A DNA stretch of 64,000 nucleotides, from positions 124,001 to 188,000 of the forward strand of contig NZ_JADYTU010000001.1 in NCBI RefSeq assembly GCF_021531375.1, read 5' to 3'. Position numbers and translations under genes: made by a program. The notes beneath the pieces were generated by a model, which saw nothing but the letters and a program-made list of their open reading frames with translations, made no database searches and was not told where the DNA came from. Positions 34,607 to 50,530 of the stretch are shown one piece after another. This DNA comes from Pseudoflavonifractor phocaeensis (GTDB taxonomy: Bacteria > Bacillota > Clostridia > Oscillospirales > Oscillospiraceae). How positions within the stretch are numbered: the stretch's first letter is position 1; each line of letters begins with the position of its first letter.

Positions 34607-34614
34607 TTTGTGGA

Positions 34615-34962: not shown

Positions 34963-34991
34963 AAAAAGCCCTCCTCATATGCGTTACGTTG

Positions 34992-35020
34992 ATTCTACCA
35001 AATTTTTAAATGGTTGTCGA
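34992..35020 (-). promoter_or_regulatory. Promoter for yerC
   Basis: On the minus strand TCGACA (35020-35015), 17 bases, TAGAAT (34997-34992). The element GTAACGCA (34987-34980) lies at the expected start point. Confidence 0.55.
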
Positions 35021-35095
35021 GCAAAAATGCAGGTAAAAAGCAAAAAGAATAAGGACGGGCCCGGCGGGAATAGAGTGAATCGGAGGTGTTGCCCA

Positions 35096-35467: not shown

Positions 35468-36054
35468 AAAACCATGAACCTTTTGGGGCAAAATGGCGCC
35501 TGCTGGCGAGAGTGGGAGTCCATTGCTATATTTTGATTTCCAATATATCGGGTGCGGTAAAAGTAGTCCCTCTCCAAATTCTTCAGTTTCCAGTGGTGCT
35601 GCCCCACAAGTTTCAGGACGCAGAAAAGTTCAATTTGCAGTTCCCGGACTTCTCGGAAATCACCGAAACAGCGGACAAGCTGCGCTGGCTTCGATACCAG
35701 AAAGGACTGCGGCAGAGAGACGTTGCAGACTACGCCGGGATAGACCGGAGCACCTATGTCCACTATGAGGAATACGGCAAAGACCTCTATCCGCCGGAGC
35801 ACATGGAGAAAATCGCGCAGCTTTTTGAAGTGCCGGTCGATACGCTTCTGGATGACTACAATCTATTTCTGAGGAATGGTCAGGGCAACCAGATCAAGGC
35901 AATCCGAACGAAACTGGGGCTGACGCAAAAACAATATGCGGACAAGCTGGGCGTCAGCCTTGGAAATCTCAAGCATTGGGAGCAAAACCGCAAGCAGATT
36001 TTCAAATCCACATGGGAGAAGTATTTCAAACAGAGTCTTGAAAGCCGTGAATAA
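35443..36054 (+). CDS. Double-HTH (Xre-type) protein, start uncertain
   Basis: The frame is open from GTG at 35443, inside the tail of truncated sigK, but no RBS supports it; GTG at 35512 is another choice. The certain part has two Xre-type helix-turn-helix units: [21 protein letters not shown] and [21 protein letters not shown]. It ends [11 protein letters not shown]. Similar proteins occur on clostridial mobile elements. The N-terminal third may be a remnant of another gene. The mark CATGAACCTT-TTGGGGC at 35473 recurs imperfectly at 36343, hinting at a duplication or insertion of the stretch between. Confidence 0.6.
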
Positions 36055-36097
36055 TTCCGATAGAATTATTACAGAATCATTCAGGAGATACAGACCC

Positions 36098-36301
36098 ATG
36101 ATTATTAAATCTTCGACTGCACTGTGTAACGACTACAGCATGGTCTCTGATCTGGCGCATGAAAAAGCCGAACAGCGTGAGGAAACCTTGAAGCTGCGCG
36201 CAAAGCTGGAGGCAGCAGAGGCCGCTCGGCTTTCCGGCGCACCTGCCTACACGTTGGAGGAATCCAGAAAACGGTTGGAGGCAATCTATCAGCGTGACTG
36301 A
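36098..36301 (+). CDS. Phd/YefM-like antitoxin with internal deletion
   Basis: ATG at 36098 follows AGGAGA. The 67-residue product opens MIIKSSTALCNDYSMVSDLA and ends LKLRAKLEAAEAARL with TLEESRKRLEAIY, both typical of small Phd/YefM antitoxins. The usual middle (IYITKNGEGD..VVMS) is missing: LAHEKAE joins directly to EQREETL. The deletion is in frame and probably removes the DNA-binding strand. No toxin gene follows. Confidence 0.65.
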   Translation: MIIKSSTALCNDYSMVSDLAHEKAEQREETLKLRAKLEAAEAARLSGAPAYTLEESRKRLEAIYQRD

Positions 36302-36430
36302 CCTTGCACTCAGCGGGAGGTTGAAGCCATCGCGCAGCTCCACATGAACCTTGTGGGGCCAAATTCAGCGAGAAACATATGAAAAACGGGCAGACCGGCG
36401 TTCAATGCTGGCCTGCTCGTTTGCTATGTA

Positions 36431-36607
36431 TTATTGCTGCGCTTTCAGATGCTTCACGGCTGCGTCCACCAGTTCCAGCTTCTGCTCCGTGGAACAGGGC
36501 AGCTTTTGGATGGATTTCAGCGCCTGCTCGGACTGGAACTTCGCCAGCTCCTGCCCAAGCTCCTGCTGCGCCTGCTTTGATTTCGGGAAGATCAGAAATA
36601 CTTCCAT
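36431..36607 (-). CDS. Small helical protein, 58 residues, unknown function
   Basis: ATG at 36607 has AAAGGAGGG five bases upstream. The product starts MEVFLIFPKSKQAQQELG and continues as a charged, Gln-rich helix (SEQALKSIQKL). It reads in the same direction as the replication and mobilization genes that precede it on the minus strand. No family is recognised. Confidence 0.6.
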   Translation of the reverse strand: MEVFLIFPKSKQAQQELGQELAKFQSEQALKSIQKLPCSTEQKLELVDAAVKHLKAQQ

Positions 36608-36749
36608 GGCTGCCCTCCTTTCCAGAGCATTTTCTGCTTCAATCTATGCGTGTGTTCCGGCGCTTATGTAGACAGATAGAACTCGATTTCGCGGCCGCGA
36701 GGGAAATCGTATTGCCACGCGGCTTTGGCGGTGCGGGAATGCTTGCAGT

Positions 36750-37151
36750 TCAAGGGCTTTTCGCCCCCAAATTGTCTACGCCCGTGCGCCGTTTACGGGC
36801 GGATTTTGCCTTCTGCCGGCGGTGAACCTCCTTGGCGCAGGCGGGGCAGTATTTTGTCCTGCCGGCGCGGGCGAGAATGCCCGCGCCGCAGACTTCGCAG
36901 CGGCGCAGCTTCTTGGGGCTGAGAATGGCCTGTTCCAGCTTGGGCTGCTGGGGCAGTACAGCGCGGCGGAACCACCGGCAAAGCAGGCTGCGGGAGATGT
37001 ACTGCGGGCAGACACCGTCCAGCAGCAGGCAGTCGCCATCCAAGAAGTTACAGCAGCGCCTTGTAAGGCCGCGCACGCTGCGGAGCTGTCCTGGCGTCAA
37101 GCGGAAGAGCGTGCCATCCGGCAGCCGCTCGATGGGGTCAAGCTTGTGCAT
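36750..37151 (-). CDS. Cysteine-rich VLP-domain protein
   Basis: ATG at 37151 follows AAAGGAGGG. The 133-residue product has RLTPGQLRSVRGLTRRCC, then LLLDGVCPQYISRSLLCRWFRRAVLP, then a CEVCG...CPAC zinc-ribbon-like pair and a basic tail. This family is confined to conjugative and mobilizable elements of Firmicutes, function unknown. Its start overlaps the RepA-like gene by 14 bases, so the two are coupled. Confidence 0.83.
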   Translation of the reverse strand: MHKLDPIERLPDGTLFRLTPGQLRSVRGLTRRCCNFLDGDCLLLDGVCPQYISRSLLCRWFRRAVLPQQPKLEQAILSPKKLRRCEVCGAGILARAGRTKYCPACAKEVHRRQKAKSARKRRTGVDNLGAKSP

Positions 37152-37524
37152 CTTCGCCCTCCTTTGCGATAAGCTTTGCATCCGCTGGGTAGTTCAGCGT
37201 AATGAGCGCAGGCTTGCCCAAGCCCTGCTTGCGTCGAACGATCAAGCCGCTGTATTCCAGCTCCCGGAAGATCCGCGTGGTGCTCTGGCGGCTGCGGTGG
37301 AGCTTCGTCTGCGCCTGCTCCAAGGTGAAGTACAGCCGAATTGTGCCGTCCGGCTCAACGTAGCCGTTCTGCCGGGAGATGCTGGCTCTGTCCAGCAGGA
37401 GAGCGTAGAGCACCTTTGCGTCGTTGCTGATGTCCCGCAGGGCTTCGTCTTGGAGAAGGAACCTTGGAAGCGGCACATAGGACGCCGCTGGGCTCTGCGT
37501 CGTGAGCTTGCAAAAAGTTTTCAT
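37138..37524 (-). CDS. RepA-like replication initiator, N-terminal-domain protein
   Basis: ATG at 37524 has AGGAGGT directly upstream. The 128-residue product begins MKTFCKLTTQSPAASYVPLP and has a winged-helix pattern (SNDAKVLYALLLDRASISRQNG, then LHRSRQSTTRIFRELEYSGLI). This is the RepA_N type found on plasmids and integrative elements. It is shorter than full RepA proteins, so it may act as an accessory or be a remnant. Confidence 0.78.
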   Translation of the reverse strand: MKTFCKLTTQSPAASYVPLPRFLLQDEALRDISNDAKVLYALLLDRASISRQNGYVEPDGTIRLYFTLEQAQTKLHRSRQSTTRIFRELEYSGLIVRRKQGLGKPALITLNYPADAKLIAKEGEDAQA

Positions 37525-37752
37525 CTGACCTCCTATCCCATCCATCCCATCAGGTGTATTGATTGGATTGATAGATTGATTCTCTTGTATCTTGATTTAT
37601 TTCTTATTAGTTAGAGAATGAATTTCAGCCCCGATGGAAGGCACGAAAACCGTCGTCCTGAAATCCGGTTGCGGAACGCTCCGGAGCGTCAGCTTGTCCA
37701 CCGTCCGGAAAACCGGTGACGGAAAACCCACACACGGAAAATCCCGTTGTGG
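37525..37752. other. Intergenic stretch upstream of the RepA-like gene
   Basis: No gene is visible. It holds a perfect 14-bp palindrome, ACGCTCCGGAGCGT (37676-37689), and AT-rich sequence at 37555-37620. A site for RepA is possible. Confidence 0.4.
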
Positions 37753-38091
37753 TCAAAGCTCGTCCTTTTGCCGCGCTTTCAGCAGCTCCCAGATCTCGGC
37801 CTGCCGCGCTTTCAGCTCGGCAACGTCGTCCTCATAGCAGCGCCCGGTACTGTTGATGCGGCGGCAAATCTGGTTGATGTTCGAGGCGACTCTGCTGACG
37901 GTGGCAGCCAGCTTCTTTTGCTCGGTGTAGTCCACCTTGATGATGTACCCGTCGATCAGCATCTTCCGGGCATACGCCCCGAAGTTGTGCGTCCCCAGCT
38001 GGCGCATTTTGTGCTGGATGAGATTCAGCTCCTGCTCGTTCAGGCAGATTTCCTTGCGGATGGGGCGCGTGCGGTCTGGCATGAGAATCAC
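37753..38091 (-). CDS. mobC: MobC-like relaxosome protein
   Basis: The 112-residue product resembles mobilization accessory proteins: RKEICLNEQELNLIQHKMRQ, then FGAYARKMLIDGYIIKVDY, VASNINQICRRINSTG and a charged helix. MobC helps a relaxase nick oriT, but no relaxase gene is in the element. ATG at 38091 overlaps the previous stop (ATGA); an internal ATG at 38082 is possible. Confidence 0.83.
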   Translation of the reverse strand: MILMPDRTRPIRKEICLNEQELNLIQHKMRQLGTHNFGAYARKMLIDGYIIKVDYTEQKKLAATVSRVASNINQICRRINSTGRCYEDDVAELKARQAEIWELLKARQKDEL

Positions 38092-38348
38092 CCCTTCAGG
38101 TGCAGCCCGAAGGCACCGTTTTCTTCCAGAATTTCCAGATAGCCGTTGCCGGTGAGTTCAGCAAAAACCGGAGCAACTTTTTCGGGCGGAAGGGTCAGAG
38201 CATTTGCAAGTTCCTGAGCACTCAGACCGCCGTCTTCGAAGGTGTACAAGAGCGCGCCGGTGAGCTTGGCTTCTGCGGAGAGGTTCGTATCCAGCAGGAG
38301 GCGGGTGGGGACAGCAGTCATGTGGGTGTGGTTGTAGTAAGTGATCAT
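38088..38348 (-). CDS. Small winged-helix-like protein, unknown function
   Basis: The 86-residue product (MITYYNHTHMTAVPTRLLLD) has a segment LTGALLYTFEDGGLSAQELANAL that reads like a helix-turn-helix with a following wing (NGYLEILEENGAFGL). GGAGAACC precedes the start. It is translationally coupled to mobC and may be a relaxosome or control protein. Confidence 0.62.
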   Translation of the reverse strand: MITYYNHTHMTAVPTRLLLDTNLSAEAKLTGALLYTFEDGGLSAQELANALTLPPEKVAPVFAELTGNGYLEILEENGAFGLHLKG

Positions 38349-38479
38349 AGTGGTTCTCCTTTCGATTTTGAAAATCTCTGTTTGAAGGGCGGGTTTGGAT
38401 GGATTGGTTTCCCTTTCACCATCCCACGGACAATTTTTGACCGTTTGTCAGGTGGCTTGAAAAAATTCCGGACGTACAG

Positions 38480-38505
38480 AAGGTCCTCTATATAACCAAC
38501 GGACA
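38480..38505 (+). repeat. 26-bp direct repeat, copy 1
   Basis: AAGGTCCTCT, seven variable bases, CAACGGACA. It matches 38571-38596 at 21 of 26 positions. Confidence 0.75.
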
Positions 38506-38570
38506 CATTTTCCGGTTTTGTCCGAAAAAAGTTTTGAGGATGGAGGCCTCCTCCTGCACTCTCGCTCCAA

Positions 38571-38596
38571 AAGGTCCTCTCACTATTCAACGGACA
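38571..38596 (+). repeat. 26-bp direct repeat, copy 2
   Basis: Second copy, 91 bp from the first. The fixed ends with variable middles suggest a protein-binding iteron or oriT element. Confidence 0.75.
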
Positions 38597-38634
38597 AAAT
38601 GATGCGGCGCGTCACGGTTCTGTCATAACAAGGA

Positions 38635-38676
38635 CAAAAAAGAAGCGCTTGCCACTACGACAAACGCTTCTTTTTT
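38635..38676 (-). terminator. Terminator of the DUF1653-like gene
   Basis: Stem AAGAAGCG../..CGCTTCTT with A and T runs on either side; on the minus strand it follows the stop codon at 38684 closely. Confidence 0.8.
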
Positions 38677-38683
38677 GCATCAA

Positions 38684-39427
38684 TTATTCGAGCAAATCCT
38701 CTATGTCCTTTTGGTCGTATTCAGTTTTCTGCATCAACCGGCAGACGCCGTCTGCCTCGTCCCGCTGCTGCAAAAGCTGAGCAAACGCCCGATAGAGTGC
38801 AATCTGCCGACGCTCGATTGCGCCGCGATTCATGTGCATGGCCTCAGCCGTTTTGCGGATGGACAGTCCCTCGGAAAAGCGTTTCCGAAACAGATCGGCG
38901 TAATCATTGAGCACGGTTTTGAGGGATTGCTGAGCAAAGGCAAGGTCCTCGCACATGGCTTGATAAGCTTCACGGCCTGATACACCGATGTACTGCTTGC
39001 GCTCCCGGATCAGCTTGTACCGCCGCAGATCCATCCGGTAGTTTTCACAGATGTCCTTGGCGTATTCATAGTACGTTTTACTGCGCCGGATGTGGCGTTC
39101 GTCCTGTTCGCAAGGGATATACACAAAGGGCTTGCGCTTGGGTTCCGGAAAGCCGTCCTCTGTTACTTCTCCGATCATTTCCGGTTCGACCTCGCGCCGG
39201 GTCTGACGGATGTATTTATCTTTAAGAATACCATCCACATTCACCTGCTCACAGAAGGACTCCAGGCGAATGGTGTAGTATTCCTCATTGCCTTCCCGGA
39301 TGAAGCTGGCATCCTTGCAGATCACAACAGCTTCGCCGGTATCGATATCTTTTACCACGCGGACAACGTAGATCCGCTTGCCGTCGTATCGTTTATAGTA
39401 ACCGGCAAAAACGCGTTTGACTGCCAT
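38684..39427 (-). CDS. DUF1653-like protein with sigma-70-like helices
   Basis: ATG at 39427 has GGGAGGGG upstream, giving 247 residues; the open frame extends further upstream without support. Residues 1-75 (AGYYKRYDGKRIYVVRVVKD, then DTGEAVVICKD) resemble DUF1653. The rest is helical and charged with a sigma-factor-like segment (LSIRKTAEAMHMNRGAIERRQIALY), suggesting DNA binding. A weak promoter is upstream (TGTTTA at 39490-39485, TATACT at 39467-39462, minus strand). The role is unknown; control of element genes is plausible. Confidence 0.6.
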   Translation of the reverse strand: MAVKRVFAGYYKRYDGKRIYVVRVVKDIDTGEAVVICKDASFIREGNEEYYTIRLESFCEQVNVDGILKDKYIRQTRREVEPEMIGEVTEDGFPEPKRKPFVYIPCEQDERHIRRSKTYYEYAKDICENYRMDLRRYKLIRERKQYIGVSGREAYQAMCEDLAFAQQSLKTVLNDYADLFRKRFSEGLSIRKTAEAMHMNRGAIERRQIALYRAFAQLLQQRDEADGVCRLMQKTEYDQKDIEDLLE

Positions 39428-39734
39428 GCATAGGCCCCTCCCATCCGTGTGATTTGCTATCAGTATATCATAGAGTGCGGCCGATAAACAGGACAATTTG
39501 AAAAACGCGGATCAGGGAATGTTGAAGAATAGCAAGCACATCCGGTGTCCGTACACACCGGAAAAATGCACGCGCTGCCCCCTCCGTCCAAGCGTGCATT
39601 TTATCATTTGGGATGATCCCAAACCCTGTGTTTTTGATAAACCTCGGTTATTCAGTTATAATCAGAGAAATGAGATGATAACAAGAGCAACACAAACAGC
39701 TGGTGCTTCAGACCGCATAATGTCCATGAACTAC

Positions 39735-39772
39735 GGCAAGAGACTTTCGCAATGTGATGCGAAAGTCTCTTG
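39735..39772 (+). other. Perfect hairpin overlapping a promoter
   Basis: Arms GCAAGAGACTTTCGC/GCGAAAGTCTCTTGC with an eight-base loop. The 3' arm ends in the -35 box of the next promoter, so it could be an operator or an upstream terminator. Confidence 0.7.
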
Positions 39773-39798
39773 CTTTATGACTTTGGATGGCGTATAAT
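39770..39798 (+). promoter_or_regulatory. Promoter for the Xre gene and likely the helicase pair
   Basis: TTGCTT (39770-39775), 17 bases, TATAAT (39793-39798). Confidence 0.7.
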
Positions 39799-39829
39799 TA
39801 TGTCAACATTTGTAGTTGGAGGTAGGAAA

Positions 39830-40048
39830 ATGGCTATCTCATATAACAAGCTTTGGAAATTACTTGTTGATAGAAAAATGAGCAAAGCGGATTTGAGAAA
39901 AGCTGCTGGGATTGCGCCAAATACCATGACCCGCTTGAGGCGCGATGAGGAAGTCACACTTACGGTGCTCAATAAGATCTGTACATCGCTCAACGTCAAT
40001 ATTGGTGATATCATGGATTTCGTTCCGGATAATTGTTCTATAAGCTAA
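39830..40048 (+). CDS. Small Xre-family regulator
   Basis: ATG at 39830 follows GGAGGT. The 72-residue product is a single HTH: WKLLVDRKMSKADLRKAAG, then APNTMTRLRRDEEVTLTVLNKICTSL. It lies 41 bp upstream of the helicase gene, behind the same promoter, and probably controls it. One-HTH genes heading defence cassettes are common. Confidence 0.85.
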   Translation: MAISYNKLWKLLVDRKMSKADLRKAAGIAPNTMTRLRRDEEVTLTVLNKICTSLNVNIGDIMDFVPDNCSIS

Positions 40049-40089
40049 TATTCATTTTATAATCATCTTGATTTAGGGAGAAAGAAGCA

Positions 40090-43000
40090 ATGAGTTTACA
40101 TCCCGGTCTATACGAACAAGTCATCAACAATGCCTTGACGGGCGAGCTTGTGGAGATTCCGGAGGCTCGCAAGTCTGTTGCACCCATTGACAAGGCGGAA
40201 GCCTCCAAGGTGCTGGCGCAGTATCTGGCGGATGTGGTTCAAAAGGGCTTGGATAACGTGCTGGACAACGGCGGGGATATTTCTGCCCAGATCGGGCTGA
40301 CCAACCAGATCGTTGAGCTCATTCAAAATACGACGCAAGAAGCTGACTTTGCTGCGTTGGGCGTTGACCGGCGGGCAGAGCAGCTTCTTGCGCTTTTACG
40401 GGAGACCGACCCGCGGCTGGCGGTGGGGAAAACAGCGGCGGACATAGAGCGCCCGGAAACCTCCATCGCACAGAGTTCCCTATTCACCGGCGCAGTGCAT
40501 GAGCCGCAGATGTTTACAGAGCTCAAAAAGGAAATCGTCTCGGCCGACCGGATCGACATGCTGGTGTCCTTCATCAAATGGAGCGGCCTACGGCTCATCA
40601 TGGACGAGCTGCGGGAGTTTACGCATAGCGGCGGCGAGCTCCGTATCATCACCACCTCCTATATGGGCGCTACCGATGTAAAAGCCATTGAGGAGCTTCG
40701 AAAACTGCCCAATACACACATCAAGGTCAGCTACAACACCAAGACGACCCGGCTCCACGCCAAGGCATATATCTTTTACCGTGAAACCGGCTTTACGACG
40801 GCTTATGTTGGTTCGTCCAACCTGTCCAATGCGGCATTGACTAGCGGGTTGGAATGGAACACAAAAGTAACGCGGCGCGACCTACCCGAAACCATCGACA
40901 AGATCGCCGCTACCTTCGAGTATTACTGGAATGACCGGGAATTTGAGTACTATGATGAGGGACAGAAAGAGCGTCTGGCCTATGCGCTGAAAGCGGAAAA
41001 ATATTTCGACACCAACAATGCCGACGTCTACACCATGGACATCAACCCCTATTCCTACCAGCAGGAGATTTTGGACAAGCTGGAGGCGGAGCGCACCGTC
41101 CGAGGTTATACTCGCAATCTAGTGGTAGCCGCCACCGGTACCGGCAAGACGGTCATCTCTGCTTTAGACTACAAGCGCTTCCGCAAGCAGAATCCGGATA
41201 GACCCTGCCGCCTGCTGTTTGTGGCGCACCGAGAGGAAATCCTCAAGCAGAGCTTGTACACCTTCCGCGCCGTGCTCAAGGACGCAAACTTTGGTGAGCT
41301 GTTTGTGGGCAACTATAAGCCGGAGAGCATCGACAACTTGTTTCTGTCCATCCAGACTTTCAACTCACAGAGCTTCACGGAAAAGACGAGTCCCGATTTT
41401 TACGATTACATCATCGTGGACGAATTCCATCATGCCGCCGCGCCGACTTACCAGAAGCTCTTGTCCTACTACCAGCCGCGCATCCTGCTGGGCTTGACCG
41501 CTACTCCGGAGCGTATGGACGGCAAGAACATCCTGCCCTACTTCAACAATCGTATCGCCGCTGAGATCCGTCTGCCGGAAGCCATTGATCGAAAGCTCCT
41601 GTGCCCGTTCCAGTATTTTGGCGTTACCGATACGGTGAATCTGGATGCGCTCAAATGGTCCGCCGGTGGCTACCAAAAGAGCGAGCTGGAGCACATCTAC
41701 ACGTTCAGCGGGGCGGTTGCCGACCGCCGCGCCGACCATGTGGTGACGGCACTGCTGAAATATGTGACGGACATTGACGAGGTGAAGGGTCTCGGCTTCT
41801 GTGTGACGGTAGATCACGCGGAATTTATGTGCCGTTATTTTAACGACCACAACATTCCGTCCATGTGCCTCACCGGGCAATCTTCGGACGAGGAAAGAGC
41901 GGCGGCAAAGCGGCGCTTGGTGTCCGGCGAGGTGCGGTTTATCTTCGTCGTGGACATCTATAACGAGGGCGTAGATATTCCGGAAGTCAATACTGTTCTT
42001 TTTCTGCGTCCCACGGAGTCATTGACGATCTTCTTGCAGCAGCTGGGACGTGGTCTGCGTCTATCCGAGGACAAGGAATGTCTGACCGTGCTGGACTTCA
42101 TCGGTCAGGCAAATAGAAAATACAATTTTGAAGATAAGTTTGCGGCGCTGCTGTCGAATACCACCCGCAGCGTGAGCCGTGAAATTAAGGATGGTTTTGT
42201 GTCAGTCCCCAAGGGCTGCTATATCCAGCTGGAGAAGAAGGCGGCCAAATACATTTTGGAGAATATCCGCGCTTCCTATGGCAATACGGCTGGGTTGGTG
42301 GCTCGCGCAGCCTCCTTTGCGGAGGACAGTGGGCTGGAGCTGACGCTCAAAAACTTCTTGGATCACTACCATCTTGACCCACGGGCGATCTACAAGTTTT
42401 CCTCCTTTTCTCGCATTTGTGCCAGAGCGGATGCCATCGAGGACTTTTCAGAACCGCTGGAGGACATCCTGACCAAAGCGTTTGCAAAGCTCGCCGTGGT
42501 TGATTCTCGCCGCTGGATTTCGTTCCTGTTGGACGTCCTTCCGCGTTTGGACAACCTTGATTTTGCAGCGCTTCCGGATGTGGAAAAGCGGATGATGCAA
42601 ATGTTTTACATCACCGTCTGGGGTAAGGCTGTGGAGGACTGGGACGACGAAGAGGTGCTTAGTAACCTCTATGCCCTGTCTGACAGCACGGTTCTGCTCG
42701 GCGAGCTCTTGGAACTGCTGCGCTACCGCTTCGAGCAGATCGACTTCATCGACGAGCCGGTTGACCTGGGCTTTGACTGTCCTCTGGATTTGCATTGCAC
42801 CTATACCCGCGACCAGCTCTTGGTAGCGCTGGACTTTATGAAGCCGTCCACCGTTCGTGAGGGCGTGAAGTGGCTGCCGGAGAAAAACATCGATGTGTTC
42901 TTTGTGACGCTGAACAAGGCGGACAAGGACTACTCGCCAACCACCATGTACAACGATTATTCCATCAATGAGAGCTTGTTCCATTGGCAGAGCCAGAGCA

Positions 43001-43248
43001 CCACGGCGGAGAATTCGTCCACCGGTCAGCGCTATATCCACCACAAGGAACGCGGCAGCAGGGTGCTGCTGTTTGTCCGTGAGTTTAAGTCGGACCGTAT
43101 GACCGGCGGTGCGGAAGCGTACACCTATCTGGGCACGGCGAACTACGTGAAGCATACGGGCAGCAGGCCGATGAATATCACCTGGCAGCTGGACCGCCCG
43201 ATCCCGGCGAAGTTCTTGAAGAAGACAAATAAGTTGGTAGTAGGCTGA
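40090..43248 (+). CDS. PLD-nuclease / SF2 helicase / DUF3427 protein
   Basis: The 1052-residue product has three parts. Residues about 130-300 form a phospholipase-D-type nuclease domain with the HKD motif RLHAKAYIF (His223, Lys225) and AYVGSSNLSNAAL. Residues about 320-700 are a superfamily 2 helicase: Walker A AATGTGKTVIS (Lys353), VDEFHH (Asp444), GLTATPERMDG and QQLGRGLRLSEDKE. The C-terminal third fits DUF3427, including RAIYKFSSFSRIC. Such proteins occur on mobile elements and in defence islands. It probably acts on foreign DNA; that role is inference. Confidence 0.88.
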   Translation: MSLHPGLYEQVINNALTGELVEIPEARKSVAPIDKAEASKVLAQYLADVVQKGLDNVLDNGGDISAQIGLTNQIVELIQNTTQEADFAALGVDRRAEQLLALLRETDPRLAVGKTAADIERPETSIAQSSLFTGAVHEPQMFTELKKEIVSADRIDMLVSFIKWSGLRLIMDELREFTHSGGELRIITTSYMGATDVKAIEELRKLPNTHIKVSYNTKTTRLHAKAYIFYRETGFTTAYVGSSNLSNAALTSGLEWNTKVTRRDLPETIDKIAATFEYYWNDREFEYYDEGQKERLAYALKAEKYFDTNNADVYTMDINPYSYQQEILDKLEAERTVRGYTRNLVVAATGTGKTVISALDYKRFRKQNPDRPCRLLFVAHREEILKQSLYTFRAVLKDANFGELFVGNYKPESIDNLFLSIQTFNSQSFTEKTSPDFYDYIIVDEFHHAAAPTYQKLLSYYQPRILLGLTATPERMDGKNILPYFNNRIAAEIRLPEAIDRKLLCPFQYFGVTDTVNLDALKWSAGGYQKSELEHIYTFSGAVADRRADHVVTALLKYVTDIDEVKGLGFCVTVDHAEFMCRYFNDHNIPSMCLTGQSSDEERAAAKRRLVSGEVRFIFVVDIYNEGVDIPEVNTVLFLRPTESLTIFLQQLGRGLRLSEDKECLTVLDFIGQANRKYNFEDKFAALLSNTTRSVSREIKDGFVSVPKGCYIQLEKKAAKYILENIRASYGNTAGLVARAASFAEDSGLELTLKNFLDHYHLDPRAIYKFSSFSRICARADAIEDFSEPLEDILTKAFAKLAVVDSRRWISFLLDVLPRLDNLDFAALPDVEKRMMQMFYITVWGKAVEDWDDEEVLSNLYALSDSTVLLGELLELLRYRFEQIDFIDEPVDLGFDCPLDLHCTYTRDQLLVALDFMKPSTVREGVKWLPEKNIDVFFVTLNKADKDYSPTTMYNDYSINESLFHWQSQSTTAENSSTGQRYIHHKERGSRVLLFVREFKSDRMTGGAEAYTYLGTANYVKHTGSRPMNITWQLDRPIPAKFLKKTNKLVVG

Positions 43249-43277
43249 CATACTTGGCATGATTTAAGGAGACACCT

Positions 43278-45986
43278 ATGGACGCACGAAAGCACTTAAT
43301 CATCATAAAAGGAAAAGACCAGACGGACTCGGTCGCGAGCTTTCAGTTCCATGACGGGAAGTGCGAGGTCGTCTATACCAGTGCGCCCAATAAGACATAC
43401 AGCTTTCAGAGTAGCAATGTGGAGATCCTGCCTCTGAAAAAGAAAATTGACCCTGCGCAGGTGATTGTCATCGCAAATGGGCAAGCCATCAGCGGAATTG
43501 ATGAGATTCTCGATTTCAGCGGGTATTATCGTATTGTCCGCAACGGAAAGAGAGATTTATCGTTCCACAGGAGCGAAGTGCAGTTCCAGCAGAATTGCCT
43601 GGCAGACGGTAAAAATCAAGAAGCATTCCAATATTTCAAGGAGACTGCCGCTGCAATCAGTCTGGTGGCGGAAAACGGTATCAACATTCTAAGTATGCAG
43701 TATGACAAGATCCAGCAGGTCAGCGAGGATACCGTGTTGGCAAGCTATCTTGCACCGCAGAAAGACGTCAAAATGCCCCAGATGCCTGAGGCAGTGATCT
43801 ATCCGTTTGGCCTGAACCAGAGTCAAAAGCTGGCGGTAGAACGGGCGCTTTCCTCCAAAATCAGTATCATTCAGGGGCCACCGGGTACTGGGAAGACACA
43901 AACGATCCTGAATATCATCGCCAATGTTGTTCGCAGCGGAAAAACCGTGGCGGTTGTCTCCAACAACAATTCCGCAACGCATAATGTTGTGGAAAAGTTG
44001 GAGAAGAAAAATGCCGCTTTTCTGACTGCGTTTCTCGGCAGCCTTGCCAACAAAGAGAAGTTTCTGGATGCACAGACAGGCACCTATCCGAATATGAGCG
44101 CTTGGGAAATGTCGCCGGAGGAACGACAGCAATTAGATCAGGAAACGACTGCGCTCTCCAAAGAACTGAACGAAATGCTCAATGCCAAAAACCGCATTGC
44201 GGAAATTGAGCAGGAGTTCTTACAGCTAAACCCGGAGCAGCATTATTTTGAGGAATATTACGCAAGTTACAGTGACATGCCAATGGAGAGCTTGGACAAG
44301 CTGTCCTCGCAGAAGCTTCTTGCGCTTTGGATGGAATTTGAACAGCATGCAGAGTGTGAGACTCGCTTGGGCCTGTTGCAAAAAATATCCATCATGTTTC
44401 GATTCAACCGTAATGCGCTCAAATTGTTTATCCGTTCCCCGGAACAGGTCATTCCCTATTTGCAGAGTCAGTTTTATTCGGTGAAGAGGCGGGAACTGGA
44501 GGCTGAAAAGCAGGAATTGCACCGAAAGCTGGAGCGTTACGCTTTCGACGCGAAGATGGAAGAGCTCACTCAGAAGTCCCTGCGGCTGTTCCGGGCGGAA
44601 CTGGCAACACGGTATCATTGGCGAAATAATAGACGGTGCTTTGAAAAGAATGATTTCCGCCGGAATTCCGAAGAGTTTACCCGCGAGTATCCGGTGGTGC
44701 TTAGCACGACCTATTCCATCAAAGGAACGCTGAGCATCGATCATATCTACGATTACTTGATCGTGGATGAAGCCTCACAGGTCGATTTAGCCACAGGGGT
44801 ACTGGCATTTTCCTGTGCGCGGAATATCGTGATTGTCGGGGACTTGAAGCAGCTCCCCAATGTGCTGACGGAGGATGACATTCGCACCAGCGATGCCATT
44901 TGGCAAAAGCATTCCTTGGATGAGCGTTATCGCTTTTCTACCCACAGTTTGCTGTCCTCTGCATTGGAAATATGGCAGGATGCACCTGTTACGCTGCTGC
45001 GGGAACACTACCGCTGTCACCCGAAGATCATCAATTTCTGCAATCAGAAGTTCTACCACGGACAGCTGATCGTTATGACAAAAGACCATGATGAGCCGGA
45101 TGTGTTGACCATGTACCGGACGATTGCCGGTAATCACGCCCGTGGGCATCTCAACCAGCGCCAGATCGATGTCATCCAGCAGGAGGTGCTTCCGCGGCTG
45201 CATCAGCAAAATTTCCAGAGCATCGGTATTATCACGCCATATCGGGATCAGGTGACAGCCATCCGCAAGCAGCTGGGAGATACTTATGAGGTGGACACCG
45301 TCCACAAGTTTCAGGGGCGAGAACAAGATGCGATCATTCTGACCTCAGTCGACAATGTCATCACAGATTTTGTGGATGATCCCCATATGCTGAATGTGGC
45401 GGTTTCCCGCGCGGTCCATTCGCTGACGGTGGTCACATCGCAGGACCCACGTAATGACCAGACCAACTACGGCGATTTGACACGATACATCGAATATAAC
45501 AATTTTGAAGTGATCCAGAGCCAAGTCTACTCCGTGTTCGATATGCTCTACCAGGGCTATGCCGAGCAGCGCAAGGTATATCTGCAAAAACATAAGCGGG
45601 TATCTGAGTACGATTCTGAGAATCTCATGTACTCTGTGATTCAAGAGGTGCTGTCCGAAGAGGCATTTTCCACTATCGGCTGCGCTGTACATGTTTCTCT
45701 TGCAACACTGGTGAAAGACTATGAACCGTTGACGGAGGAAGAACACAAATATGCCCGGAATCCGTTGACGCATGTTGATTTTTTGTTATTCAATCAAATG
45801 GATAAACAACCTGTGCTAGCAATTGAAGTGGACGGGACTGGCTTCCATGAAGCCGGGAGCAAACAGGCAGAACGCGATATAAAGAAGAACTCCATTCTGA
45901 AGAAGTGTGCCATCTCGCTGCTGCGGCTACGTACTGACGGTAGCGGAGAAAGAGAGAAGATTAGGACTGCACTAAAGAGAAAATGA
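43278..45986 (+). CDS. SF1 (Upf1-like) helicase with C-terminal DUF2726-type nuclease
   Basis: The 902-residue product begins with about 170 residues of unknown type. The helicase core has GLNQSQKLAV (Q motif), GPPGTGKTQT (Lys206), VDEASQ (Asp497), GDLKQLPNV, REHYRCHPKIINF, VDTVHKFQGREQDAI and NVAVSRAVHSLTVV. Residues about 820-900 resemble a DUF2726/Vsr-like nuclease: HVDFLLFN, then AIEVDGTGFH, AERDIKKNSILKK. It starts 29 bp after the PLD-helicase gene, so the two are very likely co-expressed. Upf1-like helicase-nuclease fusions recur in anti-phage systems. Confidence 0.88.
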   Translation: MDARKHLIIIKGKDQTDSVASFQFHDGKCEVVYTSAPNKTYSFQSSNVEILPLKKKIDPAQVIVIANGQAISGIDEILDFSGYYRIVRNGKRDLSFHRSEVQFQQNCLADGKNQEAFQYFKETAAAISLVAENGINILSMQYDKIQQVSEDTVLASYLAPQKDVKMPQMPEAVIYPFGLNQSQKLAVERALSSKISIIQGPPGTGKTQTILNIIANVVRSGKTVAVVSNNNSATHNVVEKLEKKNAAFLTAFLGSLANKEKFLDAQTGTYPNMSAWEMSPEERQQLDQETTALSKELNEMLNAKNRIAEIEQEFLQLNPEQHYFEEYYASYSDMPMESLDKLSSQKLLALWMEFEQHAECETRLGLLQKISIMFRFNRNALKLFIRSPEQVIPYLQSQFYSVKRRELEAEKQELHRKLERYAFDAKMEELTQKSLRLFRAELATRYHWRNNRRCFEKNDFRRNSEEFTREYPVVLSTTYSIKGTLSIDHIYDYLIVDEASQVDLATGVLAFSCARNIVIVGDLKQLPNVLTEDDIRTSDAIWQKHSLDERYRFSTHSLLSSALEIWQDAPVTLLREHYRCHPKIINFCNQKFYHGQLIVMTKDHDEPDVLTMYRTIAGNHARGHLNQRQIDVIQQEVLPRLHQQNFQSIGIITPYRDQVTAIRKQLGDTYEVDTVHKFQGREQDAIILTSVDNVITDFVDDPHMLNVAVSRAVHSLTVVTSQDPRNDQTNYGDLTRYIEYNNFEVIQSQVYSVFDMLYQGYAEQRKVYLQKHKRVSEYDSENLMYSVIQEVLSEEAFSTIGCAVHVSLATLVKDYEPLTEEEHKYARNPLTHVDFLLFNQMDKQPVLAIEVDGTGFHEAGSKQAERDIKKNSILKKCAISLLRLRTDGSGEREKIRTALKRK

Positions 45987-45988
45987 TT

Positions 45989-46063
45989 ATGTCGAGAATA
46001 ATGAGGAATACAATCAGATGTAAAAAATGTGGAGACGTCATCGAAAGTAAAACCATTCTTTGA
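45989..46063 (+). pseudogene. Truncated zinc-ribbon small protein
   Basis: Twenty-four codons (MSRIMRNTIRCKKCGDVIES, then KTIL and a stop) match the start of a small Firmicute zinc-ribbon family. The second Cys pair is lost. It begins three bases after the helicase stop. Confidence 0.5.
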
Positions 46064-46119
46064 GACATAACGCTTCGTTTCAGCAATTCTATTATGAATG
46101 CTAGATTGTATTGGTTTCG

Positions 46120-46168
46120 ATTATACCCCCATTATACCCTTGATTTCACGGGTATAATGGGGTATAAT
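46120..46168 (+). promoter_or_regulatory. Promoter with large inverted repeat upstream of the ATPase gene
   Basis: TTGATT (46140-46145), 17 bases and TATAAT (46163-46168). Arms 46120-46139 and 46150-46168 are complementary with one extra base and consist of GGTATAAT units, so a regulator could cover both promoter boxes. Confidence 0.78.
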
Positions 46169-46202
46169 TCTATGCATAATAGTTTCACCGGGGAGGTGCA
46201 CC

Positions 46203-47987
46203 ATGGAGCTATTTGAGCTTCAAGCCAAAATTGCTGATCTGGAGCAACAGATTGCGGAGCTGCCTGCAGGGTTTGTCACAAAGAAGACGATCAACGGCAA
46301 TGTGTATTTCTATCACCGTTGGACGGAGAACAAAAAGCGGCGGGAGAAGTATATTTCTGCTGACGAATTGGAAAACTTCCGTGCTCAGATCGAGAGGCGG
46401 AAGGAACTGGAGCATGAGCTGAAGGCGCTGAAAAAGCAGCTGCCCAAGGCGAAATCTGCGAGCCCTTCCGCGTTTACCACCAATGTCCGCACCGGCGAGG
46501 CGCTGCGCTCCTTTGCGGCATCTGTTTGCGGCTATCGCAGGCGCGAGTGTTTCCAGCAGCTGCACAACTTTGTCTACGGCGAGCCGCAGGACAAGGTATT
46601 CATCCTCTACGGCCTGCGCCGGACGGGGAAAACCACTATGATCCGCCAGATTTTCGCGGAGATGAGCGACGCAGAGCTTTCGAAAGCAGCTTTCATTCAA
46701 ATCACAGCAAGAGACACATTGGCTGATGTGAACCGCGATCTCAAGACGTTGGAGGAGCAGGGCTTCCGCTATGTGTTTCTCGACGAAGTGACGCTGATGG
46801 AGGACTTTATTGAGGGCGCGGCGCTGTTCTCCGATGTGTTTGCCGCCTGCGGAATGAAAATCGTGCTGTCCGGCACGGATTCACTGGGTTTCCTGTTCAC
46901 GGAGGATGAGCAGCTCTACGACCGCTGCATTCTGCTGCACACGACCTTCATCCCTTACCGCGAGTTTGAGTCTGTGCTCGGCATTCATGGCATCGACGAG
47001 TATATCCGCTACGGCGGCACTATGAGTCTCGGCGGTGTCCACTACAACGAAACCTCCACGTTTGCCAGCAAGGAAAGCGCGGACGAGTATGTGGATACGG
47101 CTATTGCACGCAACATCCAGCACTCCCTGCGCTGCTATCAGTACGAGGGACATTTCCGCCATCTGCGTGACCTGTATGAGAGGAACGAACTGACCAGCGC
47201 CATCAACCGCGTGGTGGAGGACATCAACCACCGTTTCACGCTGGAAGTGCTGACACAGGATTGGAAATCCCACGACCTTGGCATTTCCGCCAGCAATCTT
47301 CGCCGGGATCGGGAGAACCCTACGGACATCCTTGATCGCGTTGACCTTGTAGCTGTCACAGACAGCCTGCGGAAGTTGCTGGAGATCCGGAACAAGGCGG
47401 AGCAGACTTTGGCGTTGGACGATATTCATGCGGCGGAGATCAAAGAATATCTGGATTTGCTGGACCTGACGCGGGAGATCGACGTGCTGCACCTGCCGGA
47501 TGTCAGCCGGAAATCCAGCCGCACGGTGATCGCCCAACCCGGTCTCCGCTATGCGCAGGCCGATGCGCTGATCCGCAGCCTGCTGCTGGATGAGACATTC
47601 AGCGCCCTGTCTTTGCCGGAGCGCACCGCTGTTCAGGAACGCATTCTGACCGAGATCAGAGGCCGGATGCTGGAAGACATTGTCCTGCTGGAAACCAAGC
47701 TGGCGAACCCCAAAAAGCAGGTATTTGTCCTGCAATTTTCCGTGGGCGAGTTCGATATGGTGGTGTTTGACCCGGAGGCGGGCTCCTGCCGGATTTTCGA
47801 GATCAAGCACAGCGAGGAAGCTGTCCCACAGCAGTATCGCCATTTGATCGACGAGCAAAAATGCGCCCAGACCGAGCACCGCTACGGCCCGATCACCGGA
47901 AAGTTCGTCCTCTACCGCGGGGAAAGCCAAGTGGTAGATGGCATTCGATATCAGAACGTGGAAGAATATCTGAGAAGCCTTGCATGA
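46203..47987 (+). CDS. AAA ATPase with C-terminal PD-(D/E)xK-like domain
   Basis: GGGGAGG precedes the ATG. The 594-residue product starts with a coiled-coil segment (ELQAKIADLEQQIAEL, later RAQIERRKELEHELKALKK). An ATPase of the DUF4143-linked type follows: YGLRRTGKTTM (Lys143), YVFLDEVTLMEDF (Asp195 region) and LSGTDSLGFLF. The C-terminal part has FDMVVFDPEAGSCRIFEIKHSEE, which fits a PD-(D/E)xK nuclease core (Asp, then Glu-x-Lys). The family is abundant in gut anaerobes and its role is mostly unknown. It has its own promoter and terminator, so it is a separate unit. Confidence 0.8.
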   Translation: MELFELQAKIADLEQQIAELPAGFVTKKTINGNVYFYHRWTENKKRREKYISADELENFRAQIERRKELEHELKALKKQLPKAKSASPSAFTTNVRTGEALRSFAASVCGYRRRECFQQLHNFVYGEPQDKVFILYGLRRTGKTTMIRQIFAEMSDAELSKAAFIQITARDTLADVNRDLKTLEEQGFRYVFLDEVTLMEDFIEGAALFSDVFAACGMKIVLSGTDSLGFLFTEDEQLYDRCILLHTTFIPYREFESVLGIHGIDEYIRYGGTMSLGGVHYNETSTFASKESADEYVDTAIARNIQHSLRCYQYEGHFRHLRDLYERNELTSAINRVVEDINHRFTLEVLTQDWKSHDLGISASNLRRDRENPTDILDRVDLVAVTDSLRKLLEIRNKAEQTLALDDIHAAEIKEYLDLLDLTREIDVLHLPDVSRKSSRTVIAQPGLRYAQADALIRSLLLDETFSALSLPERTAVQERILTEIRGRMLEDIVLLETKLANPKKQVFVLQFSVGEFDMVVFDPEAGSCRIFEIKHSEEAVPQQYRHLIDEQKCAQTEHRYGPITGKFVLYRGESQVVDGIRYQNVEEYLRSLA

Positions 47988-48008
47988 TAACAGTTCAATA
48001 AAAACTTA

Positions 48009-48047
48009 GGCAGCCTCTGGTTGAAACCAACCGGAGGCTGTCTTTTA
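48009..48047 (+). terminator. Terminator of the ATPase gene
   Basis: Stem GGCAGCCTCTGGTTG with its near-complement (one G-U pair), loop AAAC, then TTTT. Confidence 0.88.
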
Positions 48048-48058
48048 CTTATTGAATC

Positions 48059-48092
48059 GAACTTGTTTATCCGATATGCTATAAACAAGTTC
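48059..48092. other. 12-bp inverted repeat
   Basis: GAACTTGTTTAT/ATAAACAAGTTC with a 10-base spacer, all pairs Watson-Crick. It has operator-like geometry. Confidence 0.7.
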
Positions 48093-48194
48093 GCCGGAAT
48101 TGACTTGACGTATGACAAGTAGCAATGCGCAAAAATCGTGCGGCGAGACTGCAAGAATGCAGTCGATGACGAAAACAATAATGTTCTAAATAGC

Positions 48195-48245
48195 GCGCAT
48201 CGCTCATTTCATCAATCATTTTCTCGATACACATGAGCGATGCGC
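48195..48245. other. 13-bp inverted repeat with 25-base spacer
   Basis: GCGCATCGCTCAT (48195-48207) and ATGAGCGATGCGC (48233-48245). Possibly a binding site for the recombinase or a directionality factor, or a remnant of a smaller insertion. Confidence 0.7.
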
Positions 48246-48318
48246 TCCGAACTGGCACGATCATCGCGCGAAAACCCCTGCCTCCCGCAGAAATTTTCAG
48301 ATTCTTCCCTTGGGTACC

Positions 48319-48347
48319 TTTTCAAACGGATTCCAATCCGTTATAAT
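48319..48347 (+). promoter_or_regulatory. Promoter of the recombinase with palindromic operator
   Basis: TTTTCA (48319-48324), 17 bases, TATAAT (48342-48347). A palindrome ACGGATT-CC-AATCCGT (48326-48341) fills the spacer. It looks sigma-A-like and repressible, not like a typical SigE promoter. Confidence 0.6.
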
Positions 48348-48384
48348 ATATCTACCAACCTAACGAATAACGCGAGGTGCCGCC

Positions 48385-50094
48385 ATGAAAACGAAAGATA
48401 CGCCGAAGCAATACGTCATCTACTCCCGCAAGTCCAAATTCACCGGCAAGGGCGAGAGCATTGAGAACCAGATCGAGCTGTGCCGCCAGTACATCGCCAT
48501 GCACTTTGGCGAGGAAGCGGCGGAAAACGTGCTGGTCTACGAGGACGAGGGCTTTTCCGGCGGCAATCTGGAGCGCCCGCAGTTCAAGAAAATGATGAAG
48601 GACTCCCAGAAGATCGCCTTTGCCGCCATCGTGGTCTACCGCCTCGACCGCATCAGCCGCAACATCGGTGACTTTGCGAAGCTCATCGAGGATTTGGGCG
48701 ACCGGCACATCGACTTCATCTCCATCCGCGAGCAGTTCGACACGTCCTCGCCCATGGGCCGCGCCATGATGTACATTGCGTCGGTTTTCTCCCAGCTGGA
48801 GCGGGAGACCATCGCCGAGCGCATCCGGGACAATATGCATGAGCTGTCCAAAACCGGGCGCTGGCTGGGCGGCACCACACCTACCGGCTACGCCTCGGAG
48901 AGTGTGTCCAGCGTGACGGTGGACGGTAAGGTGAAGAAAGCCTGCAAGCTGAAGCCCATTCCGGAGGAAATCCAGCTGGTCAAGACGATTTTCTCGGTTT
49001 TCATGGAGACCGGCTCCCTCAGCAAGACCGACCAGTATCTGCTGGAGCACCGCTGCGTCACGAAACGCGGCAAGCAGTTCACACGCTTTGCCATCCGGGG
49101 CATTCTGACCAATCCGGTCTACATGATTGCCGACGAGACGGCGTATGCGTATCTGAAAGAGAACCATGTGGATCTATTTGCTGAGCGCTCGGAGTTCGAC
49201 GGCGAGCACGGCATCATGGCCTATAACCGAACCTTGCAGCGCGCGGGCAAGGCAAACCAGATCCGCCCCATGGAGGAATGGATCGTGGCGGTGGGTAAGC
49301 ACCCCGGCATTATCGCAGGCAGCGATTGGGTGCAGGTGCAGGCCATGCTGGACGTGAACAAATCCAAGAGCTACCGCAGACCACGCAGCAACGTGGCGCT
49401 GCTGTCCGGCCTGCTGCGGTGCAGCGAGTGCGGTGACTATATGCGTCCAAAGCTGACCAACCGAACCAATGCGGACGGCGAGCTGATCTACACCTATATG
49501 TGTTCCACCAAGGAGCGCAGCCACGGCACGGTCTGCGGCATGAAAAACTGCAACGGCAACACTCTGGACGCCAAGATCATCGAGGAGATCCGCAAGCTGT
49601 CCGCCGACAAAGAGACCCTCTCCAATTTGCTGGCGCAGACGAAAAAAATCATCAGCGGCAGCAAGGAGGGCTACGACGCGGAATTGGCGCTGCTGAAAGA
49701 GAAGCACGCAGAAACGGAAGACCGCATCAAGCGTCTGGTGGAATCTCTGTCCGTTGCCAGCGACACCTCAGCCAAATACGTCATGGAGCAGATTGACGAG
49801 CTCCACCGGGAGAGCGAGACGCAGCAGGCAAGGCTTTCTGAGCTGGAAGCCCTCACTGAGCAGAGCCGGATGCTGCATCAGGAGTTTGCCTTCCATCAGG
49901 AAATGATAGAGTCGTTCGCCAATGCGGTGGATTCGGCAACGCTGGAAGAAAAGCGACGCCTGCTGCGCACCATTGTCAAAAAAGTGGTCTGGGATGGCAA
50001 AAACGCCTACGTCTACCTGTTTGCGGAGGATGGAGAGGCGGATTTGCCGCCTGTTGACCAATCTATGTATCCGTTGGGAGAGGATAGCGAATGA
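48385..50094 (+). CDS. spoIVCA: Large serine recombinase of the sigK element (SpoIVCA-like)
   Basis: This site-specific recombinase should excise the element from sigK in the mother cell. The 569-residue product has the resolvase domain (YVIYSRKS with catalytic Ser14; VYRLDRISRN; SPMGRAMMYIASVFSQLERE). The recombinase domain follows (GGTTPTGY, FTRFAIRGILTNPVY), then a zinc ribbon (LLRCSECGDYM, then YMCSTKERSHGTVC) and a coiled coil (about 415-500). GAGGTG precedes the ATG. Its stop TGA (50092-50094) lies in the right junction, so excision uncouples the gene from sigK. The equivalence to SpoIVCA rests on position and family. Confidence 0.93.
   Translation: MKTKDTPKQYVIYSRKSKFTGKGESIENQIELCRQYIAMHFGEEAAENVLVYEDEGFSGGNLERPQFKKMMKDSQKIAFAAIVVYRLDRISRNIGDFAKLIEDLGDRHIDFISIREQFDTSSPMGRAMMYIASVFSQLERETIAERIRDNMHELSKTGRWLGGTTPTGYASESVSSVTVDGKVKKACKLKPIPEEIQLVKTIFSVFMETGSLSKTDQYLLEHRCVTKRGKQFTRFAIRGILTNPVYMIADETAYAYLKENHVDLFAERSEFDGEHGIMAYNRTLQRAGKANQIRPMEEWIVAVGKHPGIIAGSDWVQVQAMLDVNKSKSYRRPRSNVALLSGLLRCSECGDYMRPKLTNRTNADGELIYTYMCSTKERSHGTVCGMKNCNGNTLDAKIIEEIRKLSADKETLSNLLAQTKKIISGSKEGYDAELALLKEKHAETEDRIKRLVESLSVASDTSAKYVMEQIDELHRESETQQARLSELEALTEQSRMLHQEFAFHQEMIESFANAVDSATLEEKRRLLRTIVKKVVWDGKNAYVYLFAEDGEADLPPVDQSMYPLGEDSE
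50090..50093 (+). other. Right attachment core (attR) of the sigK element
   Basis: AATG, identical to attL; the bases that follow (AGATCCTAATG) continue the SigK reading frame, while those before belong to the recombinase gene. Confidence 0.85.
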
Positions 50095-50455
50095 GATCCT
50101 AATGTACTTTCGGGCACAGAAGAAACTGCAGGGGGAAGTGTCTCTGGCGGATACATTGGAATCGGGGGGGGAGGGAGGATCCCTGTCTCTGATGGATGTG
50201 ATCGCGGTGGACGACAATATGCTGGAGGAACTGGATACCCGGGATGCCTGCCAGAAGGTGCGTAGATGCGTGGATACCTGCCTGACCCCCAGGGAGCGCA
50301 CAATCATCGTTCGGCGTTACGGACTGGATGACCGTCCGCCGCAGACCCAGCGGGAGATCGCCGCCCAGTGTGGCATCAGCCGCTCTTATGTATCCCGCAT
50401 CGAAAAACGGGCACTGGAGAAGCTGGAAGACGCCATGCAGGGGTGGCGGCCATAA
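50090..50455 (+). CDS. sigK: SigK, C-terminal part (regions 3-4), severed by the skin element
   Basis: From the junction the frame reads NEILMYFRAQKKLQGEVSL, which continues the SigK N-terminal part exactly. It contains region 4 with the HTH TQREIAAQCGISRSYVSRIEKRALEKL. There is no start codon with an RBS of its own, so it depends on excision for translation. Together with codons 1-110 it gives a 231-residue protein. The ends of the two parts carry no decay, so selection for excision is strong. Confidence 0.95.
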   Translation, partial: NEILMYFRAQKKLQGEVSLADTLESGGEGGSLSLMDVIAVDDNMLEELDTRDACQKVRRCVDTCLTPRERTIIVRRYGLDDRPPQTQREIAAQCGISRSYVSRIEKRALEKLEDAMQGWRP

Positions 50456-50472
50456 TGGAAGAGCATGACAAA

Positions 50473-50506: not shown

Positions 50507-50530
50507 CTGTGCCAGGCAGAAAGTGCGGGA

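What the first reader, a model, noticed from the sequence alone, without database searches (positions are those of the whole stretch)
39770..45986. Candidate two-gene anti-phage cassette in the skin element
An Xre regulator is followed, behind one promoter, by a PLD-nuclease/SF2 helicase/DUF3427 protein and an SF1 Upf1-like helicase with a DUF2726-type nuclease end. Both pair helicase and nuclease modules and are probably co-expressed (29 bp apart). I do not recognise the pair as a named defence system. Housing in a sporulation-excised element would mean that only the mother cell loses it.
Basis: inference. Interest (0 to 1): 0.78.

Follow-up and report, generated by a model that had tools for sequence, protein, structure and literature searches.

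The report
SauUSI-type restriction enzyme plus solitary helicase-nuclease
A gut Clostridia genome carries, inside a piece of DNA that splits a sporulation gene, an enzyme of a known type that shreds foreign methylated DNA, followed by a widespread and still unnamed helicase-nuclease that usually travels alone, so the two are probably neighbouring defences and not one new two-part system.

Summary
An HTH gene (39830-40048), a PLD/SF2/DUF3427 protein (P1, 40090-43248) and an SF1 helicase with a DUF2726 nuclease end (P2, 43278-45986) lie in one row inside a 14.66-kb element that splits sigK. A congener has the unsplit gene.

P1 is not unknown. It matches PADLOC's type IV restriction model over most of its length (E 2.5e-232) and the solved structure of SauUSI (7clg). 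It keeps the HxK, helicase and two key 5-methylcytosine-pocket residues.

P2 is a widespread Upf1/Dna2-like helicase-nuclease without a full-length model in PADLOC. It is not an obligate partner of P1. Two genomes of other genera carry P2 at 94-95% identity without a P1 homologue. In one, only about the last 50 codons of P1 survive, directly upstream of an intact P2. Of 86 P2 loci, 5 have a P1-like gene within about 10 kb, in varying order: far above chance, but the pattern of defence islands, not of a fixed pair. P1's recurrent partner is a Nudix hydrolase (11 of 42 loci).

Best reading: a SauUSI-like type IV enzyme and an independent single-gene helicase-nuclease, probably also defensive, co-transcribed as skin-element cargo. 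No activity could be tested.

The parts
35430..50089 (.). skin-type element (14.66 kb) interrupting sigK
   Evidence: window flanks 33782-35429 and 50090-51956 align to adjoining parts of an uninterrupted sigK locus in a same-genus genome, G329/L157; G329 sigK is whole, 96% identical
34928..35429 (+). N-terminal half of sigK (ORF start not refined)
   Evidence: translation; sigK search gives own hit to residues 1-96
50090..50455 (+). C-terminal half of sigK
48385..50094 (+). large serine recombinase (Resolvase, Recombinase, Zn-ribbon), next to the sigK C half
   Evidence: Pfam; 11 of 13 homologues fetched from the family also adjoin a sigK half
39634..39662 (+). sigma-70-like promoter upstream of the HTH gene
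   Evidence: TTGATA-17-TATAAT, 11/12; consensus match only
39736..39773 (.). perfect 16-bp inverted repeat just upstream of the HTH gene; operator or hairpin
   Evidence: function not tested
39830..40048 (+). HTH_26 (Cro/C1-type) regulator
   Evidence: Pfam E 2.8e-23; a short ORF of similar sequence precedes the P1 homologue in L107 by 19 bp
40090..43248 (+). P1: SauUSI-like type IV restriction enzyme (PLD nuclease, SF2 motor, coupler, DUF3427/SRA)
   Evidence: PADLOC mREase_IV E 2.5e-232; SauUSI structure 7clg E 1.9e-88 over residues 147-1023; catalytic and pocket residues
43278..45986 (+). P2: stand-alone Upf1/Dna2-like SF1 helicase with tandem N-terminal beta-barrels and C-terminal DUF2726 PD-(D/E)XK-type nuclease
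   Evidence: Pfam; invariant K206 and D834/E850/H857/Q863/D867/K870 in 48 homologues; AlphaFold pLDDT 89.3; Ighmbp2/Upf1 Z about 25

Best explanation
Two independent nucleic-acid-degrading defences share one operon in a skin element. P1 works like SauUSI: a dimer whose C-terminal SRA (DUF3427) domain reads 5-methyl- or 5-hydroxymethylcytosine, which switches on an SF2 motor that translocates along duplex DNA, while the PLD nuclease makes breaks and shreds the modified DNA. P2 is a single-gene system: a Upf1/Dna2-type ATP-driven motor that moves on single-stranded nucleic acid and presents it to its C-terminal PD-(D/E)XK-type nuclease, most likely attacking phage ssDNA intermediates or transcripts. 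Their co-transcription here is a loose assembly of the kind seen in defence islands. Shown here: domains, conserved residues, folds, loose linkage, empty site. Inferred: substrates, the defence role of P2, joint expression.
For: P1: PADLOC model over residues 118-1042; 7clg over 147-1023; H223/K225, K353, DEFH and QQLGRG motifs; SauUSI pocket Asp858 and Trp868 have counterparts in P1 and in most homologues that keep the domain; SauUSI mechanism from PMC7913695. P2: catalytic residues invariant in 48 proteins from several phyla; Upf1/Dna2 fold. Independence: P2 at 94-95% identity in G354 and G363 without P1, with only a P1 C-terminal relic in G363; no recurrent partner. Defence setting of P2 relatives: type I R-M and Septu PtuA in G363, a type I methyltransferase in G354, Wadjet in G035; SNF2, N6-methylase and TIR genes in Parabacteroides; next to an integrase-like gene in a viral contig.
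Against: No activity data for either protein. P2 often sits alone among ordinary genes (34 of 75 loci with both flanks have no close co-directional neighbour), and the PADLOC comparison of near and far neighbours was not decisive. Co-localisation with P1 exceeds chance (5 observed, about 0.08 expected), so some functional synergy is not excluded. The SauUSI pocket residue Tyr831 aligns to Val in P1, and the Glu of SauUSI's HxKx4E motif is a Tyr in P1, so base preference and catalysis could differ.
Confidence: 0.68

Rival explanations
1. A dedicated two-gene defence system: P1 senses and cuts modified DNA, P2 unwinds and degrades the ends or transcripts, and both are needed. It would be the SauUSI-based counterpart of type II/III CoCoNuT systems, where a type IV McrBC core is nearly always encoded with a UPF1-like helicase.
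For: 29-bp spacing and shared promoter-like site; 5 of 86 P2 loci have a P1-like gene near, about 0.08 expected; genome-level association in 290 Clostridia, Fisher p = 0.017; the P1-P2 junction also existed in G363; type IV plus UPF1-like helicase is an established pairing in CoCoNuTs.
Against: Near-identical P2 without P1; P1 lost while P2 stays intact in G363; P1 mostly without P2; order and spacing not conserved; P1's recurrent partner is a Nudix hydrolase.
Confidence: 0.13
2. P2 is not a defence gene but an accessory DNA-repair or RNA-processing helicase-nuclease (Dna2-like) that happens to be mobile.
For: Closest folds are cellular Upf1, Ighmbp2 and Dna2; many P2 copies sit singly among housekeeping genes.
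Against: Patchy distribution: 9 of 291 Clostridia, 643 of 5,426 E. coli. Phyla are intermixed in its tree. It occurs on plasmids, on islands, in a viral contig and next to restriction, Septu and Wadjet genes. Split or interrupted copies occur. Repair genes are seldom so dispensable.
Confidence: 0.17

Closest known systems
SauUSI type IV restriction enzyme (PDB 7clg; PMC7913695)
   Same: PLD nuclease, SF2 helicase-like motor, coupler region and C-terminal DUF3427/SRA in the same order; HxK, Walker A and DExH motifs; pocket Asp and Trp conserved
   Different: P1 has about 100 more N-terminal residues ahead of the PLD domain; pocket Tyr831 aligns to Val; the Glu of HxKx4E is Tyr in P1; HTH_26 gene upstream; activity not tested
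UPF1-like helicases CnuH of CoCoNuT systems, above all Type III-B with a fused Vsr-like nuclease (PMC11090510)
   Same: UPF1-like SF1 helicase with helical insertion, fused or coupled to a nuclease, associated with type IV restriction
   Different: P2 is mostly solitary; no McrC-family (PF10117) match in this genome; tandem N-terminal barrels and a DUF2726 domain instead of the CnuH N-terminal parts
Mokosh (MkoA/MkoC)
   Same: UPF1-like (COG1112-type) helicase core, MkoA E 2.1e-51; Mokosh too combines this core with a PLD nuclease (own knowledge)
   Different: only the helicase core of P2 matches (residues 138-740); no MkoB match; P1's PLD belongs to a type IV enzyme
skin / sigK intervening elements
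   Same: split sigK, terminal large serine recombinase, empty site in a congener
   Different: cargo here is P1/P2 plus replication/mobilisation-like genes; about ten other elements of the family read here carry other cargo

Membership tests
SauUSI-type (type IV modification-dependent) restriction enzymes | N-terminal PLD nuclease with HxK motif | tested here: met
   PLDc_2 E 1e-11; H223/K225 conserved in aligned homologues
SauUSI-type (type IV modification-dependent) restriction enzymes | SF2 helicase-like motor in the middle | tested here: met
   ResIII E 5.2e-37, Helicase_C; K353, DEFH, QQLGRG
SauUSI-type (type IV modification-dependent) restriction enzymes | C-terminal DUF3427/SRA target-recognition domain with 5mC pocket | tested here: met
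   DUF3427 E 1.6e-24; counterparts of SauUSI F841, D858 and W868 present, I842 is Val, Y831 aligns to Val
SauUSI-type (type IV modification-dependent) restriction enzymes | full-length similarity to a characterised member | tested here: met
   7clg E 1.9e-88 over 147-1023; PADLOC mREase_IV 2.5e-232
SauUSI-type (type IV modification-dependent) restriction enzymes | cleaves 5mC/5hmC DNA with ATP | not testable with these tools
   needs protein or a restriction assay
Mokosh | full-length MkoA or MkoC, or MkoA with MkoB | tested here: not met
   MkoA and MkoC match only the helicase core of P2; no MkoB hit among the HTH gene, P1, P2 and the AAA_14 gene
CoCoNuT (type II/III) | McrB/McrC-type CnuB/CnuC | tested here: not met
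   no PF10117 (McrC) match in this genome; CnuB itself was not searched
CoCoNuT (type II/III) | UPF1-like helicase coupled to a nuclease | tested here: met
   P2 architecture and fold
dedicated two-gene P1-P2 system | conserved co-occurrence and gene order | tested here: not met
skin (sigK intervening) element | split sigK with recombinase at element end | tested here: met
skin (sigK intervening) element | excision restricted to the mother cell in sporulation | not testable with these tools
   established for other skin elements; not shown for this one

The most novel reading that the evidence does not exclude
P1 and P2 act as a layered unit, a SauUSI-based counterpart of CoCoNuTs: P1 shreds modified phage DNA and P2 clears single-stranded DNA or transcripts that escape, carried in an element that the mother cell discards while the spore line keeps it.
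Probability: 0.12. Interest if true: 0.6.

Novelty: new variant of a known kind. Interest (0 to 1): 0.36.

Why it matters
P1 ties the first gene to a biochemically understood enzyme, so its substrate (5mC/5hmC DNA) can be tested at once. P2 defines a large family without a full-length defence model: a solitary Upf1-like helicase fused to a DUF2726 nuclease, present in several phyla and, as a 33%-identical relative, in 12% of complete E. coli genomes. That relative could be tested in an ordinary laboratory strain with coliphages. The recurring Nudix gene beside P1 relatives suggests nucleotide-pool sanitation linked to type IV restriction, which is also testable.

Tried and rejected
A fixed P1-P2 cassette: rejected on co-occurrence, gene order and the G363 relic. 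Skin element as a defence hot spot: none of the other skin elements fetched carries P1 or P2, and the ORFs read in about ten of them are mostly other cargo. PADLOC tally of near against far neighbours of P2: inconclusive, because the output counts families, not proteins (90 against 56 families). Mokosh and CoCoNuT membership: defining parts not met. Literature: of the five held papers that name DUF2726, the one opened describes it as a REase-fold DNase domain; the DefensePredictor paper's main text does not mention a helicase. Searches for a named Upf1-like single-gene defence and for Nudix linked to type IV restriction gave nothing direct.
Full report
What is there. Between 39830 and 45986, on the + strand, lie an HTH_26 regulator (72 aa), P1 (1052 aa) and P2 (902 aa), all with intact frames. 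Gaps are 41 bp and 29 bp. One good promoter-like site precedes the regulator, and no terminator-like site lies between P1 and P2. A perfect 16-bp inverted repeat lies at 39736-39773, just upstream of the regulator; it could be an operator, which is inference.

The setting. Both genes lie in an element that splits sigK. Window flanks 33782-35429 and 50090-51956 align to one uninterrupted locus of a same-genus genome, G329, whose sigK is whole (96% identity). The element is therefore 35430-50089, 14.66 kb, with a large serine recombinase next to the C-terminal half. In 120 genomes of the family, 14 including this one carry a recombinase homologue. Of the 13 others fetched, 11 adjoin a sigK half. 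None of them has P1 or P2, and the cargo read in about ten of them differs. Loss in the mother cell only is how known skin elements work (established knowledge) and is not shown here.

P1. Pfam reads PLDc_2, ResIII, Helicase_C and DUF3427. PADLOC's type IV restriction model covers residues 118-1042 at E 2.5e-232. In the PDB, the best match is 7clg, which is SauUSI (the code is cited in PMC7913695), at E 1.9e-88 over residues 147-1023. In SauUSI the C-terminal domain is an SRA fold that reads 5-methylcytosine; binding starts ATP-driven translocation, and PLD dimers shred DNA between sites. P1 keeps H223/K225, K353, DEFH and QQLGRG. In the alignment to SauUSI, D858 and W868 of the modified-base pocket are kept, F841 is Phe, I842 is Val and Y831 is Val. 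The Asp and Trp are also kept in most homologues that have the domain. The Glu of SauUSI's HxKx4E motif is a Tyr in P1. P1 is thus a SauUSI-like type IV enzyme by the sequence tests available; activity is inferred.

P2. The core is SF1, AAA_11/AAA_12, with a C-terminal DUF2726. Across 48 homologues, the Walker A Lys206 and D834, E850, H857, Q863, D867 and K870 in the C-terminal domain are invariant, as expected of an active PD-(D/E)XK-type nuclease. The AlphaFold model (pLDDT 89.3) matches Ighmbp2 and Upf1 at Z about 25 and Dna2 at about 20 over residues 110-744. The first 106 residues form two small beta-barrels without a clear match. PADLOC has no full-length model: MkoA and MkoC match the helicase core only. 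In the tree, phyla are intermixed. The family is patchy: 9 of 291 Clostridia, 5 plasmid records with at least 80% coverage, and an E. coli relative (33% identity) in 643 of 5,426 genomes, there on chromosomes only.

Are they a pair? In 290 other Clostridia, P2 occurs in 8 genomes, P1 homologues in 42 and both in 4 (Fisher p = 0.017). Of 86 P2 loci with 1.21 Mb of flanks, 5 have a P1-like gene nearby, against about 0.08 expected from P1's density in Clostridia. This estimate is rough, since the loci come from several phyla. The pairs differ in order: P1 upstream with two genes between (L012), P1-Nudix-P2 (L013), P1 several kb upstream (L029), P2 upstream of P1 (L055, L079). P2 has no recurrent immediate neighbour, and 34 of 75 loci with both flanks have no close co-directional neighbour at all.

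The sharpest evidence comes from the same family. G354 and G363, of other genera, carry P2 at 94-95% identity, and neither has a P1 match at 1e-100. In G363, DNA at 92% identity to the window runs through P2 and stops inside the last codons of P1: only about 50 codons of P1 remain, directly before an intact P2, preceded by a type I R-M system and a Septu-type PtuA. So P1 was lost and P2 stayed whole. Conversely, P1 at 73-88% identity occurs in G331, G305, G293, G310 and G304, where no P2 was found. In G035 both occur about 11 kb apart with Wadjet genes between them; the P1 copy there has an internal TGA, and a second P1 copy sits on another contig. This is how unlinked defence genes in islands behave.

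P1's real recurrent neighbour is a Nudix hydrolase: 11 of 42 P1 loci have one within 100 bp on the same strand, and 3 more have one on the other strand within 200 bp downstream (two of the 11, L029 and L126, were read from their sequence, since the pattern missed them). The Nudix proteins score towards MutT and the pyrimidine (deoxy)nucleoside triphosphate diphosphatase model, below cut-offs. E. coli NudG/Orf135 of that kind hydrolyses 5-methyl-dCTP (own knowledge), so a link to cleaning modified dCTP from the pool of cells that carry a 5mC-dependent nuclease is an inference worth testing. The window's own copy lacks a Nudix gene.

Comparison with known systems. P1 is a member of the SauUSI kind. 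P2 works most like the UPF1-like helicases of CoCoNuTs, one type of which carries a fused Vsr-like nuclease and is tied to type IV restriction. It is not a CoCoNuT (no McrC match in the genome) and not Mokosh (core match only). Interest is moderate: the system-level claim weakens, while P2 and the Nudix link are useful leads.

Noticed in passing
L149 (G395:C142:7000-26900), 1411-11691: Another sigK-splitting element whose cargo reads like an arginine biosynthesis cluster (argG, argH, argC, argJ, argB, argD, argF by sequence), between the two sigK halves. Mis-assembly not excluded.
   Followed up: no
P1 homologue loci such as L013, L101, L124, L197, L202: A Nudix (MutT/NudG-like) gene lies within 100 bp on the same strand in 11 of 42 SauUSI-like loci, a possible nucleotide-pool partner of 5mC-dependent restriction.
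   Followed up: partly
window 46203-47987: AAA_14 ATPase gene downstream of P2, with its own promoter-like site (46140-46168) and weak similarity to PADLOC candidate PDC-S01 (E 1.5e-12).
   Followed up: partly
window 39736-39773: Perfect 16-bp inverted repeat upstream of the HTH gene; no other fetched locus has it (the one match, L100, is this same place).
   Followed up: partly
L187 12001-14616 (E. coli plasmid pB39_V) and E. coli chromosomes: A P2 relative (33% identity) occurs in 643 of 5,426 complete E. coli genomes on islands beside a PAPS-reductase/IbrB-like gene pair; in several O157:H7 genomes the match spans two annotated features.
   Followed up: partly
L014 9259-12001, L036, L094: Some P2 genes are split into two ORFs, suggesting inactivation (or sequencing errors).
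   Followed up: no
window 36750-38590 (- strand): DnaD/replication-initiator-like (37138-37545, PHROG DnaD-like E 8.7e-19) and mobilisation-like small genes in the left part of the element, probably remains of a mobile element.
   Followed up: partly
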